Shown here: positions 51,804 through 62,892 of the stretch, piece after piece
Position numbering within the stretch: position 1 is the stretch's first letter
Layout of the letters: each line of letters opens with the position of its first letter
DNA from: an alpha proteobacterium U9-1i
GTDB lineage: Bacteria > Pseudomonadota > Alphaproteobacteria > Caulobacterales > Aquidulcibacteraceae
NCBI GenBank assembly: GCA_000974665.1
Contig: BBSY01000003.1
Location: 434,001-498,000, forward strand
Direction of reading: 5' to 3'
DNA: 64,000 bases
Notes under the pieces: model-generated
Told to the model about the DNA's origin: nothing
The model's input: only the letters and a program-made list of their open reading frames with translations
Databases searched by the model: none
Program-made: the position numbers and the translations under genes

Positions 51804-51835
51804 CCATCCGCCGCTTGTCATCCCACTCAGCTTCC

Positions 51836-51935
51836 GTCATCCCGGACGCGCGAAGCGCGATCCGGGATTCAGGGGCAAACGCGCCGGCCTACGATCATCT
51901 GGGTCCCGGCTCTCGCTTCGCTCGGCCGGGATGAC
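51836..51935. repeat. REP/BIME-like intergenic palindromic element
   Basis: The ends are inverted copies, GTCATCCCGG (51836-51845) and CCGGGATGAC (51926-51935). Inside are two smaller palindromes: CGCGCGAAGCGCG (51847 region) and CTCGCTTCGCTCGG (51913 region). An extra half copy GTCATCCC lies at 51817. Such units are commonly dispersed between genes of alphaproteobacteria; other copies cannot be searched here. Confidence 0.7.
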
Positions 51936-51962
51936 GCATCCTGAGAAGGGGTCCGCAAAACC

Positions 51963-57582: not shown

Positions 57583-57804
57583 ATGGCCATGCCTGTCACG
57601 ACCATCCTGTCTCATCAGGACGAACTTGCGCGCAAAGCGCTCTCCGTCACCGGCGACATGAACGAGGCTGGCCTGCTGGTCGGCAGGGTGATGTCGCGCG
57701 CGTTTGACCGCCTGGAAAAGGGCGCTGCGGAAGACGCGATCACCGCCGCGCTGCGGCGGGATCTGGACGCGCTGATCACCAAGCTTCGCCGCAAGGCGAA
57801 CTAG
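57583..57804 (+). CDS. small protein resembling sigma-factor region 2
   Basis: 73 residues. ATG 57583 follows GGAGCGCCCC. 'LARKALSVTGDMNEAGLLVG' and 'VMSRAFDRLEKGAAE' resemble the conserved region 2 helices of ECF sigma factors, but the acidic DLVQ-like core is altered and regions 2.4 and 4 are absent. The remainder is helical and basic. It converges on msrB with overlapping stops in CTAG. Function unknown; could be a regulator remnant or a stand-alone small protein. Confidence 0.6.
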   Translation: MAMPVTTILSHQDELARKALSVTGDMNEAGLLVGRVMSRAFDRLEKGAAEDAITAALRRDLDALITKLRRKAN

Positions 57805-58265
57805 AGCGCTTCTCCACGTCCAAGCGGATCGGGCAGCGGCTCCCCGTCGGCCACGAATTGCAGCGCTGCCGAATTGATGCAGTAGCGCAAGCCCGTGGGG
57901 CCCGGCCCGTCCGGAAACACGTGGCCTTGATGGCTTTCGCAGCGCGCGCAGCGGGTCTCGACACGGCGCATCCCGTAGGAATTGTCCTCGATGCCGAGCA
58001 CATGGGCAGGATCGACGGGCGCGGTGAAGCTTGGCCAACCGGTGCCGCTTTCAAATTTGGTGTCCTGCCGGAACAGCGGCAGGCCGCAGAGGCGGCAGCA
58101 ATAGACGCCTGGCTTTTTCTGATTGAGCAGGCCGCCACAGAAGGGCGCCTCGGTGCCATGGTTCAGCAGCACGCGGCGTTCTTCGGCGTCGAGGGAGCTT
58201 TCCAGGCGGATGCGGTCATCCGTGGTGGGCGGCGTGAGGTCAAAACCGGATTGCGAGCGGGTCAT
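57801..58265 (-). CDS. msrB: peptide-methionine (R)-S-oxide reductase
   Basis: 154 residues. Zinc sites 'CRLCG' and 'CARCESHQGHVF', substrate loop 'FESGTGWPSFTAP', catalytic Cys in 'GLRYCINSAAL'. Reduces methionine-R-sulfoxide in proteins. ATG 58265 is preceded by AGGA at a good distance; an ATG at 58289 has no RBS. Confidence 0.95.
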   Translation of the reverse strand: MTRSQSGFDLTPPTTDDRIRLESSLDAEERRVLLNHGTEAPFCGGLLNQKKPGVYCCRLCGLPLFRQDTKFESGTGWPSFTAPVDPAHVLGIEDNSYGMRRVETRCARCESHQGHVFPDGPGPTGLRYCINSAALQFVADGEPLPDPLGRGEAL

Positions 58266-58330
58266 CTGTGGTCCTATGCCGGTGGACATTCGGCGTGGCC
58301 GCGGGTGTGGTTACATCGACAATATAGGGA

Positions 58331-58735
58331 TCAGACGACCGTTTCGCGCGCATCGTAGAGTTTGGCCAAATCCTTCATCAGGCTCTCTGCGCCGGTGCGG
58401 ATTTGTGCGTCGGTGAAATGCGTCCTCAAAGCGCGCGTGGCGTGCGCGAGGCCTTTCGGGGCGAGCTTCAGCTTGCGACGATGCTTGCGCGCAAGATGCT
58501 CGACCAGTAGTTCGGCCTTCTCCGCGGCCGGCGCAACGAGCGGCGACAATGTTCGCGCGAGCTCGCCCGCCAATGTATCGCGTGCCGATTTGGGGTTTCG
58601 CGCAGGGGCGAGCGCCGCGAAAAGCGAACGGTCGTTGTGCGCGCGGATGAGCGCGAAGAGGCGCTTCAATTCTGGCTTGCCGCGCTTGCCGCACAGCGCT
58701 TTGAGCGCTTTCCGCTGGGCGGCGTCCAAGCTCAT
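58331..58735 (-). CDS. small basic helical protein coupled to TIR-ParA
   Basis: 134 residues, strongly basic and almost all helix ('LKALCGKRGKPELKRLFALI', 'EHLARKHRRKLKLAPKGLAH', 'LMKDLAKLYDA'). No signal, membrane segment or known motif. Its ATG overlaps the TGA of the TIR-ParA gene, so both are translated together. By analogy with ParA systems that use a small partner protein (ParB, McdB or PpfA-type), it could be the ATPase partner or a DNA or RNA binder. This is inference. Confidence 0.75.
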   Translation of the reverse strand: MSLDAAQRKALKALCGKRGKPELKRLFALIRAHNDRSLFAALAPARNPKSARDTLAGELARTLSPLVAPAAEKAELLVEHLARKHRRKLKLAPKGLAHATRALRTHFTDAQIRTGAESLMKDLAKLYDARETVV

Positions 58736-60006
58736 TGGCCGCTCCGGCGCAGCACAGCGGCCGCGGTGCGGACGAGCGCTTCCTTCACCGGCCGGCTGCC
58801 CATGCGGACCATAGCGGTGTTGTTGATGGGATTGACGGTGATCCGCTCGCTGGGGACAGCGCGCAGGGCGCCGGAATACGGCACCTCCTCGGGCAGAAGC
58901 GCCGAGCCGAAGAAGGGCGCCGCAATGATCTCGGCGCGCGTCAGGGCGTCGGCGGTGTCGGGGGTTTGGGCGCGTGTGCGATCGTTCACGCCGTTCAGGA
59001 CGACCGAGAACTCCCCAGGTCGCAAGGACCTTCCCCGAACTTCGCGCACGACGTGCTCGAGCATGTTCAATCCGGTGAGTGAGTACTTCTCCGGCCGCAC
59101 GGGGGCAACGATGTGATCGGCGGTGGTGATGGCCAGGCGCGTGAGGAATGTCGCACACGGGTTGGAATCGATGATGACGGCGTCCGAGCGTTCGCGCAGC
59201 AGCGCCACGAGTTGCCGGAAGCGCGTAAAGGCCTCGGCCTTATCGCGCTCGGAGCGAGCGTCCAGCGTAAACTCGAACAAACGCTCATCGCCGGCGATGA
59301 GGTCGAAGCGGGGTTGCTTGGAACGCTTGGTGCGGTTGAGCGGCACGGCGAGGTCGGCGAACGCCGACACCGGCAAACTCTCGCCGCCGCGCGCCGTCAG
59401 CACCGAATAGATTGTGCGGTGATCGTCGCGCAGGCGGTTGCGTTCGCCGGGCGGCAAAAAGTACTGAGTGAGGTTATGCTGTGGGTCGAGGTCGATGAAG
59501 CTGATGGCGCGTTTGTCGGCGAGGTGAGCAGCGGCGAACAAATTCGCCGCCAGCACGGTTTTGCCGACACCGCCTTTGATATTGAGCATGGCGATTACGC
59601 GTCCGCGCCGTGTGCTGGCGTTGCGGCCGGCCTCGGCGATACGCGCCATGGTTTCCGCGCCCACGCCACGGCGAAGGTCGATTGCCTGATCGACCTCAAG
59701 GGTTGCGGCGATCCATGAATCTGGCGCGATCTCGCCGGCCTGGATCAGCACAATCGAGCGGCCGTTGTTGAGCGCGACGGCGACTTCGCGGCGCATCCAC
59801 ATGCTGTCTTGCGCCGCAGGGGAGGCGATGACGACGAGGAAACTGGCTTCGCCGACGGTTTGGATCAGCGCTGGAATATTCTCCTGCGCGCGCAGTTCTG
59901 GGCCTGAGCGCGTCACCGCCCAGCCGTTGCGTTCCAATTCAGCGCCCACGGCAAGCGCGGCGGCCTCGTCGGCCGCTTCAAACGCCAGATATGCCGCAAT
60001 GGCCAT
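58732..60006 (-). CDS. TIR-like domain fused to ParA/MinD-type ATPase
   Basis: 424 residues. Residues ~1-125 match a TIR_2-like fold: 'AYLAFEAADE' strand A, 'AIGQTVGEASFLVVIASP'-like 'LIQTVGEASFLVVIASP', and 'SMWMRREVAVALNNGRSIVL', where Glu74 aligns with the catalytic Glu of TIR NADases (SARM1 'WVHKEIVTAL'). A short linker leads to a ParA ATPase: deviant Walker A 'KGGVGKT' (144-150), 'FIDLDPQHNLTQYF', Walker B 'VIIDSNPCATFLTRLA' and 'VAPVRPEKYSLTGL'. ParA proteins position cargo or plasmids by dimerising with ATP on DNA; TIR domains cleave NAD+ or signal. The combination and the coupled small gene suggest a positioning or defence switch. Neither activity is proven. Confidence 0.85.
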   Translation of the reverse strand: MAIAAYLAFEAADEAAALAVGAELERNGWAVTRSGPELRAQENIPALIQTVGEASFLVVIASPAAQDSMWMRREVAVALNNGRSIVLIQAGEIAPDSWIAATLEVDQAIDLRRGVGAETMARIAEAGRNASTRRGRVIAMLNIKGGVGKTVLAANLFAAAHLADKRAISFIDLDPQHNLTQYFLPPGERNRLRDDHRTIYSVLTARGGESLPVSAFADLAVPLNRTKRSKQPRFDLIAGDERLFEFTLDARSERDKAEAFTRFRQLVALLRERSDAVIIDSNPCATFLTRLAITTADHIVAPVRPEKYSLTGLNMLEHVVREVRGRSLRPGEFSVVLNGVNDRTRAQTPDTADALTRAEIIAAPFFGSALLPEEVPYSGALRAVPSERITVNPINNTAMVRMGSRPVKEALVRTAAAVLRRSGQ

Positions 60007-60180: not shown

Positions 60181-61500
60181 ATGCCTGACGCAGACCTCAT
60201 AGACATTTTTCAACGCTTGGCGATGGCGTTGGGCATCGGCTTTTTGGTCGGCGTCGAGCGTGGCTGGAAGCATCGCGACGCCCCTGACGGCGCACGGGCG
60301 GCGGGCTTGCGCACTCATGCCGTCATCGGGCTGACGGGCGGCGTGGCCGGCGCGCTGTTGCCATTTGTCGGCGGGCTCGGCTTCGCCACGATCAGCGTCG
60401 CGGTGTCTGCCGCGCTTATCGCTTTCAAGTTGCGCGAAAGCGAGCGCGACGATGACGTGTCGGTGACGGGCACCATCGCCGGCCTGCTCGTCTATGCGCT
60501 TGGCGTCTATGCGATGGTCGGCGATCTGCGCGTGGCGGCGGCGGTTGGTGTCACACTCGCGGGCCTCCTGGCCTTCAAGGACACGCTGCACGATTGGTTG
60601 GACAAGCTGACCTGGAAGGAGCTTCGTTCAGCGCTGCTGATCTTGGCGGCGACGGCAATCGCATTGCCATTGTTGCCTGACCGACCGGTCGATCCCTGGG
60701 GCGCCGTCAATCCGCGCGAACTGTGGTTGTTGACGATTCTCGTCGCTGGCGCTTCGTTCGCTGGATATGTAGCGGTGCGCCTTCTCGGCGGCGGCGTTGG
60801 CGTGCTTGCCGGTGCAACGGTTGGCGCGGTGGTGTCGTCCACGGTTGTGACCGCAGAACTTGGGCGGCGTGCGAAGGCAGGCGATACATCAATGGCGGTG
60901 GCTGCCGCCGGCGCATCGCTTGCAGCGGCGGTAAGCCTCACACGCGTTGGCATCCTCGTTTCGGCGATCGCCGCCCCGGTGTTGATGCACGTCGCGCCTG
61001 CTTTGGGAGCGGCGGTGTCGGTGTTTGCCGGGTTTGCTTGGGTTCTGGCGCGCTCCGACGGCGCTAAGGCAAAGGGTGAGACGAAGCTCTCGAGCCCGCT
61101 TGATCTCAAATCGGTGGCGAAGTTCGCGTTGTTTCTCGGCGCGGTCATCGTGGTGGGGCGTTTGGTCTCGGATGCGTATGGCGAAGCGGGCCTGCTGCCC
61201 TTCGCGGCGGCAGCCGGCATCGCCGATGTTGATGCGGCGACACTCGCGGCGGCGAGCCTTGTTCGAAGCGGGCTTTCGCCTGAAGCCGGCGCGCACGCCA
61301 TTTTGGTCGCGGCGTTGGTGAACACGTTCGCCAAAGGGGTGATCGGCTTTGTGACGGGTGGACCGCGCTATGCGGGCCTCTATCTGGCCGCCGCGGCGCT
61401 CGCGGCCACAGTGGCTGCGGCGGCATGGCTCTTTGCCGAACCGTTGATTGAGCCCATCTTGGGTGTGGAGGCCTCGCTTCCGACACGAGCAATCGGCTAG
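60181..61500 (+). CDS. MgtC/SapB family membrane protein with DUF4010
   Basis: 439 residues. N-terminal MgtC-like block ('LAMALGIGFLVGVERGWK', 'GLRTHAVIGLTGGVAGALL') and a long C-terminal DUF4010 part with many membrane helices ('LWLLTILVAGASFAGYVAVR', 'GVLAGATVGAVVSSTVVTAE'). Inner-membrane protein; transport of Mg2+ or other ions is often proposed but unproven. ATG 60181 is divergent from the TIR-ParA gene across a 174-base gap. Its stop is directly followed by the aroG ATG. Confidence 0.9.
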   Translation: MPDADLIDIFQRLAMALGIGFLVGVERGWKHRDAPDGARAAGLRTHAVIGLTGGVAGALLPFVGGLGFATISVAVSAALIAFKLRESERDDDVSVTGTIAGLLVYALGVYAMVGDLRVAAAVGVTLAGLLAFKDTLHDWLDKLTWKELRSALLILAATAIALPLLPDRPVDPWGAVNPRELWLLTILVAGASFAGYVAVRLLGGGVGVLAGATVGAVVSSTVVTAELGRRAKAGDTSMAVAAAGASLAAAVSLTRVGILVSAIAAPVLMHVAPALGAAVSVFAGFAWVLARSDGAKAKGETKLSSPLDLKSVAKFALFLGAVIVVGRLVSDAYGEAGLLPFAAAAGIADVDAATLAAASLVRSGLSPEAGAHAILVAALVNTFAKGVIGFVTGGPRYAGLYLAAAALAATVAAAAWLFAEPLIEPILGVEASLPTRAIG

Positions 61501-62892
61501 ATGCGACTGAACATGCGTGAAAAATGGTCCCCCGCGTCGTGGCGCGCTAAGCCCGCTAAGCACATCCCGACGGATTATCCCGACCCGGCCAAATTGGCCG
61601 AGGTCGAGGCCATTCTGCGTTCCTATCCGCCGCTCGTGTTTGCCGGCGAAGCGCGGAACCTGAAGGCGCGCCTGGCCGACGTTGCGGCGGGCAAAGCGTT
61701 CTTGCTGCAAGGCGGCGACTGCGCCGAGAGCTTCAAGGAATTCCACCCCGACAATATCCGCGATTGGTTCCGGACTTTGATGTCGATGAGCGTCGCGCTG
61801 ACGTTTGCCGGCCAAAAGCCGGTGGTGAAGCTTGGACGCATCGCCGGCCAGTTCGGCAAGCCGCGCTCGGAGCAAACTGAAACGCAGAATGGCGTCACCC
61901 TGCCATCCTACCGGGGCGACAACATCAACGGCATGGAGTTCACGCCTGAGAGCCGCATTCCCGACCCTGAGCGGTTGGTCAAAGCCTATTCGCAATCAGC
62001 CGCGACACTGAACCTGATCCGCGCCTTCGCAAACGGCGGCTACGCGGATTTGCACAACGTGCATCGTTGGATGCTCGGTTTCGTTGAAGGAAGCCCGCAG
62101 GGCAAACGCTACCGCGAGACCGCCGAACGCATCACTGAATCGATAGCGTTCATGGAAGCGTGCGGCATCACCCCGGAAAGCGTGCCGCAGGTGCGCCACG
62201 TTGATGTGTACACCAGCCACGAGGCGCTGTTGCTCGGCTATGAAGAAGCGATGACGCGCGTCGATAGCACCAGCGGCGATTGGTACGACACCAGCGCGCA
62301 TTTTGTGTGGCTCGGCGACCGCACGCGCCAACTCGATGGCGCCCACGTCGAATTCGCCCGCGGCATCAAGAACCCGATCGGTATGAAGTGCGGGCCGTCG
62401 CTGGAGCCGGATGATCTCCTACGCCTGGTCGACGTGCTGAACCCCGAGAACGAGCCGGGGCGGTTGACGCTGATTGCTCGTTTCGGCGCAGAGAAAGTGG
62501 AAGCCGGGCTGCCGAAGATTGTGCGCGCCGTCGTGCGTGAAGGGCGCAACGTCGTGTGGTCCTGCGATCCCATGCACGGCAATACGCTGAAAACGGATTC
62601 CGGCTTCAAGACGCGCCCGTTCGACAGGATCATGGCCGAAGTGCGCGCGTTCATGGCCGCGCTGCCGGCGGAAGGCGCCTATCCGGGCGGCGTGCATGTA
62701 GAGATGACGGGCCAGCAGGTTACCGAATGCCTGGGTGGCGCAACGGCGGTGACGGAGGAGGACTTGTCCTCGCGCTATCACACCCATTGCGATCCACGCT
62801 TGAACGGCGCGCAAGCGATCGATCTGGCGTTCCTGATCGCCGAGCATCTGCGCGGCGTGCGCACCAACGGAACGAAGGCGAAAGCCAGCTGA
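61501..62892 (+). CDS. aroG: class II 3-deoxy-7-phosphoheptulonate (DAHP) synthase
   Basis: 463 residues, class II (plant/Mycobacterium type). '[12 protein letters not shown]', '[18 protein letters not shown]', 'SRIPDPERL' and '[11 protein letters not shown]' are diagnostic, with Cys and His metal ligands. Condenses PEP and erythrose 4-phosphate, first step of aromatic amino acid synthesis. Its ATG directly follows the preceding stop. Feedback type not readable. Confidence 0.95.

What the first reader, a model, noticed from the sequence alone, without database searches (positions are those of the whole stretch)
58732..60006. TIR-like domain fused to a ParA/MinD ATPase
The first ~125 residues look like a TIR_2 domain and keep a Glu (Glu74) at the position of the NADase catalytic Glu; the rest is a complete ParA ATPase with deviant Walker A KGGVGKT. 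TIR domains usually join STING, SAVED or NLR-type sensors, and ParA usually stands alone. A fusion could tie NAD+ cleavage or signalling to a DNA-bound positioning cycle, for example as a plasmid or phage sensor. I know of no characterised system of this form.
Basis: partly seen in the sequence, partly recalled or inferred. Interest (0 to 1): 0.8.

Follow-up and report, generated by a model that had tools for sequence, protein, structure and literature searches.

The report
TIR-ParA fusion with small basic partner
A bacterial gene joins an immune-type TIR domain to a complete ParA motor of the kind that positions DNA and other cargo; it is inherited at one chromosomal site with a small partner gene, and in a related family the TIR domain has lost its catalytic residue but is still kept, which points to a docking role rather than a weapon.

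Summary
The fusion is real. On the minus strand (60006-58732) a 424-residue protein has a TIR domain (Pfam TIR_2 above cut-off; model matching SARM1 and SPARTA TIRs) joined to an intact ParA/Soj-type ATPase. A 134-residue basic protein overlaps its stop by 4 nt. Glu74 aligns with the SARM1 catalytic Glu.

The defence/plasmid-sensor reading is not supported for this gene. It sits beside a class II DAHP synthase-like gene in its genus and in a second family (40 of 42 loci fetched there; the other two contigs end). It is dispensable: 7 of 30 genus genomes lack it with both neighbours kept. No full-length match was found among plasmids, phages or viral contigs. The Glu is kept in 18 of 18 aligned genus homologues but is Asp or Gln in 42 of 42 from the second family, where close pairs show purifying selection on the TIR. 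So the TIR is kept there without the Glu.

Sporadic paralogues, one in this genome near a nuclease-like gene, keep the Glu and may be defence-like. Best reading: a ParA-type positioning switch with TIR as assembly module and the partner as regulator. NAD+ cleavage in this genus is untested. I saw no described system of this form in the listings of ten library searches.

The parts
58732..60006 (-). TIR-ParA fusion protein, 424 aa
   Evidence: 19 relatives, 17 of them intact and near full length
59659..59988 (-). TIR domain (about residues 7-116), with Glu74 in the R-R-E-V-A segment
   Evidence: PF13676 37.9 bits; own-genome hit G000:C3:493659-493988; model and Foldseek; alignment to SARM1
58735..59604 (-). 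ParA/MinD-type ATPase domain (residues 135-424), Walker A KGGVGKT, FIDLDPQ, VIIDSNP
   Evidence: AAA_31 84.4 bits; Foldseek to Soj; the five motif residues checked (K, K, D, D, D) are invariant in 72 of 72 homologues
58331..58735 (-). small basic partner protein P0002, 134 aa, pI 10.8; its start codon overlaps the TIR-ParA stop by 4 nt
   Evidence: same 4-nt overlap in 18 of 18 genus rows; pI
60181..61500 (+). divergent neighbour (called DUF4010/MgtC-like by eye; no family search run), in the gene order of 17 of 18 genus loci
   Evidence: ORF
61501..62892 (+). class II DAHP synthase-like gene (aroF2; named by eye), conserved neighbour of TIR-ParA in two families
57801..58289 (-). msrB-like gene (named by eye) downstream, conserved neighbour and far border of the empty site

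Best explanation
It is a chromosomal ParA/MinD-type switch, inherited at a conserved site. The ATPase half most likely cycles between a free form and an ATP-bound, nucleoid-binding dimer. The small basic protein of the overlapping gene most likely acts as its ParB/McdB-like regulator or cargo adaptor. The N-terminal TIR domain works mainly as a protein-docking or assembly module that links the cycle to a cargo or makes dimers cluster, not as a phage-triggered NADase. Shown: the domains, the gene pair, the conserved site, loss of the Glu in the second family, purifying selection on its TIR. Inferred: the ATPase cycle, DNA binding, the partner's role, the TIR's non-catalytic role.
For: The five ATPase motif residues checked are invariant in 72 of 72 homologues, and the fold is Soj/ParA. 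Conserved site: aroF2 beside the gene in 40 of 42 second-family loci fetched (42 of the 58 found; the other two contigs end there), in 6 of 6 sister-genus core loci of the own family, and in 15 of 18 genus rows with the other three contigs ending early. The Glu is D (29) or Q (13) in 42 of 42 second-family proteins and D, D, D, A, H, E in six sister-genus ones, yet TIR dN/dS stays low, 0 to 0.18, in the eight both-Asp second-family pairs with ParA dS below 0.67. Partner gene with 4-nt overlap in 18 of 18 genus rows. In the genus the TIR varies more (60.6% mean pairwise identity over 16 rows) than the ParA half (84.7%), as a docking surface might. In ParABS, ParB activates ParA through an N-terminal motif (PMC12462528, abstract and outline only).
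Against: In the genus the Glu and mostly the Trp of the TIR motif are kept (E 18 of 18, W 16 of 18), which would fit catalysis here. No ORF matching the P0002 profile follows the gene in the 42 second-family loci, so the partner is not needed by all members; but that profile also misses four of the small ORFs beside other copies, so this absence is not proof. The ParA tree rejects one clade for all 67 core rows (p-AU 0.0007, long branches), so simple single inheritance at the site is not shown. The gene is absent in 7 of 30 genus genomes and frame-disrupted in one. Faster change of the TIR could also be relaxed constraint. DNA binding, ATPase activity and cargo were not tested.
Confidence: 0.5

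Rival explanations
1. An armed system in this genus: ParA dimers gathering on DNA bring TIR domains together and switch on NAD+ cleavage or a nucleotide signal, held off by the partner protein; a stress or anti-phage device carried on the chromosome.
For: Glu74 position invariant in the genus (18 of 18) and aligned with the SARM1 Glu; sporadic paralogues keep the Glu (5 of 5) and one has a pPIWI-associated nuclease-like ORF about 3.5 kb downstream; each of the 25 Glu-bearing rows of the 72 (18 genus, L059, L056, 5 sporadic) has a small same-strand ORF downstream.
Against: Conserved chromosomal site; Glu lost in the second family and most sister-genus rows with the TIR still under purifying selection. 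The genus TIR has an atypical first strand and BB loop, judged by eye from recalled TIR motifs. PADLOC gives only a weak ThsB match, E 0.053, for P0001 and none for P0002.
Confidence: 0.22
2. A former accessory conflict module (canonical TIR-ParA plus partner, as in the sporadic paralogues) that became fixed at the aroF2 site and is being repurposed, with catalysis lost lineage by lineage.
For: Sporadic copies have more canonical TIR motifs by eye, lie at several sites and fall beside both core groups in the ParA tree; at least four E/non-E changes on the tree; unfused relatives found sit in ParA-small ORF-third ORF modules, two of them on IMG/VR viral contigs.
Against: The tree has very long branches and no trusted root, so the direction is not shown; homology of the unfused modules' small ORFs to P0002 was not established (hhalign probability 13%).
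Confidence: 0.18
3. A TadZ/CpaE-like polar assembly factor: flavodoxin-like N-domain plus ParA ATPase serving a pilus or surface machine.
For: 3fkq, a two-domain protein that I recall as a TadZ, is rank 8 in the full-model Foldseek search; NCBIfam CpaE_hom_Actino matches residues 71-176 weakly (23 bits, cut-off 154).
Against: Poor superposition on 3fkq (TMq 0.34, rmsd 11.9); the N-domain matches TIRs, not receivers, in the rows shown; no pilus gene noticed among the conserved neighbours, which were followed for ten genes only.
Confidence: 0.05

Closest known systems
ParA/Soj, MipZ, McdA (ParA/MinD family)
   Same: Intact deviant Walker A and other ATPase motifs; Soj is the best structural match; a small basic operon partner
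   Different: N-terminal TIR domain; partner shows no Pfam, NCBIfam, PADLOC or PHROGs relation to ParB or McdB; scores below the NCBIfam ParA equivalog cut-offs
TadZ/CpaE (atypical receiver domain plus ParA ATPase; description recalled)
   Same: Order of a flavodoxin-like N-domain and a ParA ATPase
   Different: N-domain here is a TIR by Pfam and by fold
TIR NADase effectors (SARM1, SPARTA TIR-APAZ, Thoeris ThsB)
   Same: TIR fold and Glu74 aligned with the SARM1 Glu
   Different: Joined to ParA; Glu absent from the second family; only sub-threshold ThsB matches
Inactive MinD/ParA-like effector domains in VMAP conflict systems (PMC7159879, 12 of 17 passages shown)
   Same: A ParA-like domain used in multi-domain conflict proteins
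   Different: Those are described as predicted inactive; here the ATPase motif residues are intact in 72 of 72

Membership tests
TIR domain (Pfam TIR_2) | Score above the curated cut-off | tested here: met
   37.9 against 28 bits; TIR_2 at E<=0.01 in 20 of 20 second-family and 11 of 11 other homologues scanned (20 of the 42 fetched second-family proteins were given)
TIR domain (Pfam TIR_2) | TIR fold | tested here: met
   Model pLDDT 93.1, best PDB matches TIRs
TIR NADases | Catalytic Glu | tested here: met
   Glu74 aligned to SARM1; E in 18 of 18 genus rows, but 0 of 42 second-family rows
TIR NADases | NAD+ cleavage | not testable with these tools
   needs an enzyme assay
ParA/MinD ATPases | Deviant Walker A, A' and Walker B residues | tested here: met
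   72 of 72
ParA/MinD ATPases | ATP-dependent dimerisation and DNA binding | not testable with these tools
   needs biochemistry
ParABS partition systems | ParB-family partner | tested here: not met
   P0002 matches no family above cut-off
ParABS partition systems | parS-like centromere sites | not tested
   no repeat search made around the operon
TadZ/CpaE | Receiver-like N-domain | tested here: not met
   TIR instead
Known anti-phage systems (PADLOC 2023) | Match to a system protein | tested here: not met
   only ThsB at E 0.053 for P0001, none for P0002

The most novel reading that the evidence does not exclude
In this genus the protein is a DNA-clocked NAD+ enzyme: the ParA cycle gathers TIR domains on the nucleoid, so NAD+ cleavage or signalling is gated by DNA occupancy and by the partner protein, while a sister family has turned the same TIR into a catalytically dead docking module of the same ParA switch.
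Probability: 0.2. Interest if true: 0.85.

Novelty: new variant of a known kind. Interest (0 to 1): 0.5.

Why it matters
It shows a TIR domain built into an otherwise intact ParA-type ATPase and kept at one chromosomal site in two families, with the catalytic residue lost in one and kept in the other. This gives a natural comparison for asking what TIR domains do when they do not cut NAD+, and whether ParA cycles can gate TIR assembly. It also adds a ParA-partner gene pair for which I found no described function.

Tried and rejected
Rejected: a receiver-like (TadZ/CpaE) N-domain, on fold. Rejected: plasmid or phage partition gene. Of the records with a match, 0 of 1117 plasmids and 0 of 15 phages have a place covering 80% of P0001, and 0 of 33 plasmids for the paralogue. 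A viral-contig scan gave nothing for P0001; of 32 viral loci for alignment A3 all listed matches begin at query residue 89 or later; I read the ORFs at six of them and saw no TIR fusion (in two of the six, L129 and L139, the frame read was not the ParA ORF, so four are informative). Not shown: single inheritance at the aroF2 site, because holding all 67 core rows together is rejected (p-AU 0.0007); long branches make the tree unsure. Not established: homology of P0002 to the small ORFs beside unfused ParA relatives (probability 13%). Likely, on thin data: homology to the small ORFs beside three sporadic paralogues (probability 93%, E 2.8e-7, three rows on one side). Rows dropped before the counts over 72: L025 (contig ends inside the gene), L027 and L102 (frame-disrupted, the same genome), L028-L047 (genome-handle loci of the genus, mostly the same sequences as L009-L026, and the window's own copy), L002 and L008 (a weak hit, and a second copy of the L048 locus). 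Two further full-length matches outside these sets, G107:C12 and G110:C1, were not fetched. The dN/dS values are simple Nei-Gojobori estimates in high-GC genomes, from 26 non-overlapping pairs chosen by ParA dS, and are rough.

Full report
Observation. The gene lies on the minus strand, 60006 to 58732, ATG start, 424 residues. Pfam gives TIR_2 at residues 7-114 (37.9 bits, cut-off 28) and AAA_31 at 136-325 (84.4 bits). A second ORF, P0002 (58735-58331, 134 aa, pI 10.8), overlaps it by 4 nt and matches no family above cut-off. The AlphaFold model of residues 1-130 (18-row alignment) has mean pLDDT 93.1; its best PDB matches are TIR domains of SARM1, SPARTA and plant receptors. A diflavin protein, DNPH1 and BcmB, folds of the same broad class, appear lower in that list. 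The full model (mean pLDDT 77.5) matches Soj/ParA first; 3fkq, which I recall as a TadZ, is rank 8 with a poor superposition. A profile search places Glu74 on the Glu of the SARM1 W-V-H-K-E segment; E-values there are weak, 0.012 for the best TIR and 0.024 for SARM1.

Relatives and site. The named-genome scan found 19 loci, 66-73% identical; 17 are intact and near full length. In an order-wide search of 398 genomes, 89 have a match at E<=1e-50. By my count of the rows these are 23 of 30 in the own genus, 7 of 30 other genomes of the own family, 58 of 93 of family f2, and one of f4. Of the 23, one (G033) has only a paralogue; of the 7, one (G067, L063) is not beside aroF2. A class search of 385 genomes and a phylum search of 398 gave full-length matches only inside the order; the five other matches cover the ParA part alone. 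Fusions too distant for the E-value limits (1e-30, 1e-35) could be missed.

The site is conserved. P0001, P0002 and msrB stand in the same order in 18 of 18 loci among L009-L027 (L025 is too short to show it), with the DUF4010-like gene in 17 of them (not L021). aroF2 is seen in 15 of 18 aligned genus rows, the other three contigs ending early, in 6 of 6 sister-genus core rows, and beside the f2 gene in 40 of 42; L070 and L086 end at contig edges. These 42 are the f2 loci I fetched out of 58. In the f4 row L056, aroF2 lies about 1.7 kb away with two ORFs between. In f2, 35 of 42 loci have an opposite-strand ORF of 300 aa or more ending close to the TIR-ParA stop, and none of the 42 has a following same-strand ORF that matches the P0002 profile. 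Seven of 30 genus genomes lack the core gene, while their aroF2 and msrB matches lie 0.6-2 kb apart on one contig in all seven; two of these genomes are less than 90% complete, but the shared contig covers the site. In one genome (G202, L027) the frame is disrupted. So the gene is dispensable.

The Glu. Among 72 aligned homologues (window not included) the Glu column is E in 18 of 18 genus rows, 5 of 5 sporadic paralogues and the one f4 row; D in 29 and Q in 13 of 42 f2 rows; and D, D, D, E, A, H in six own-family sister rows. The five ATPase motif residues checked are invariant in 72 of 72. Close f2 pairs show low TIR dN/dS although the residue is Asp: 0 to 0.18 in the eight both-Asp pairs with ParA dS below 0.67. 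More distant pairs, of all groups, give higher and less reliable values, up to 0.94. The f2 TIR is therefore kept for something that does not need the Glu. Within the genus the TIR is less conserved (mean pairwise 60.6%) than ParA (84.7%) over 16 rows; this fits a docking surface, but also looser constraint.

Partner and paralogues. P0002 homologues overlap by 4 nt in 18 of 18 genus rows. Small ORFs also follow L048, L053, L054, L055, L056 and L063; L063's is a clear relative (E 3.4e-10), L048's a weak one (25 bits), the other four do not match the P0002 profile directly, and those of L048, L053 and L055 together match it at hhalign probability 93%. The paralogue in this genome (G000:C3:398207-399499) is followed by a PHROG-family ORF and, about 3.5 kb on, a pPIWI-associated nuclease-like ORF (53.4 bits). 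Two others (L053, L055) lie between a dxs-like gene and flagellar genes, named by eye. Unfused ParA relatives L106, L111, L112, L114 and L115 have a small overlapping ORF and then an ORF of 230-239 aa, with sub-threshold DUF5677 similarity in three; the relation of their small ORFs to P0002 is not shown.

Tree. A ParA-domain tree of 77 rows (72 plus five unfused) joins the own-family core with L063, and the f2 core with L056 and then the other sporadics. One clade of all 67 core rows is rejected (p-AU 0.0007), and at least four E/non-E changes are needed. Long branches limit both results. Either the site was filled more than once or copies left it; I do not choose.

Mechanism. I think the protein works as a ParA-type switch: ATP-bound dimers on the nucleoid, released by a partner that stimulates hydrolysis, with the TIR docking cargo or clustering dimers. 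The precedent of a partner (ParB) that activates ParA is from the abstract of PMC12462528. Shown: domains, gene pair, site, Glu loss, selection. Inferred: ATPase cycle, DNA binding, partner action, TIR docking. An NAD+-cleaving role in this genus and in the sporadic copies is open.

Literature. I saw the listings (top rows only, for example 20 of 89 papers) of ten searches of the open-licence library and no TIR-ParA description among them; two of the ten were aimed at TadZ/CpaE and at phage-satellite ParA rather than at TIR-ParA. Four papers were opened: PMC7159879 (12 of 17 passages) describes predicted inactive MinD/ParA-like effector domains in conflict systems; PMC11271474 (4 passages) mentions TIR and ParA-like proteins separately; PMC9503650 has none of the words ParA, MinD, SIMIBI or Soj in its main text; PMC12462528 by abstract and outline. 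Subscription papers are mostly not held.

Verdict. Confirmed as a fusion.

Noticed in passing
G000 (own genome), 25 places listed: The genome has 25 TIR_2 matches, all over the Pfam cut-off, many in long open frames.
   Followed up: no
L048:6205-12290 (G000:C3:398207 onwards): Second TIR-ParA with a more canonical TIR, a small overlapping ORF and, further down, a pPIWI-associated nuclease-like ORF.
   Followed up: partly
L106, L111, L112, L114, L115: Unfused ParA relatives followed by a small overlapping ORF and a third ORF of 230-239 aa (sub-threshold DUF5677 in L106, L111, L112).
   Followed up: partly
L049:7222-8838: A caspase-like gene (Peptidase_C14, 88 bits) lies directly downstream of TIR-ParA in one f2 genome.
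   Followed up: no
L027 and L102 (Terricaulis sp. MAG, G202): The TIR-ParA frame is broken into several ORFs while P0002 and neighbours are found; may be a pseudogene or an assembly error.
   Followed up: no
window 51826-51945: A 47-nt inverted repeat, 81% complementary, between two ORFs.
   Followed up: no
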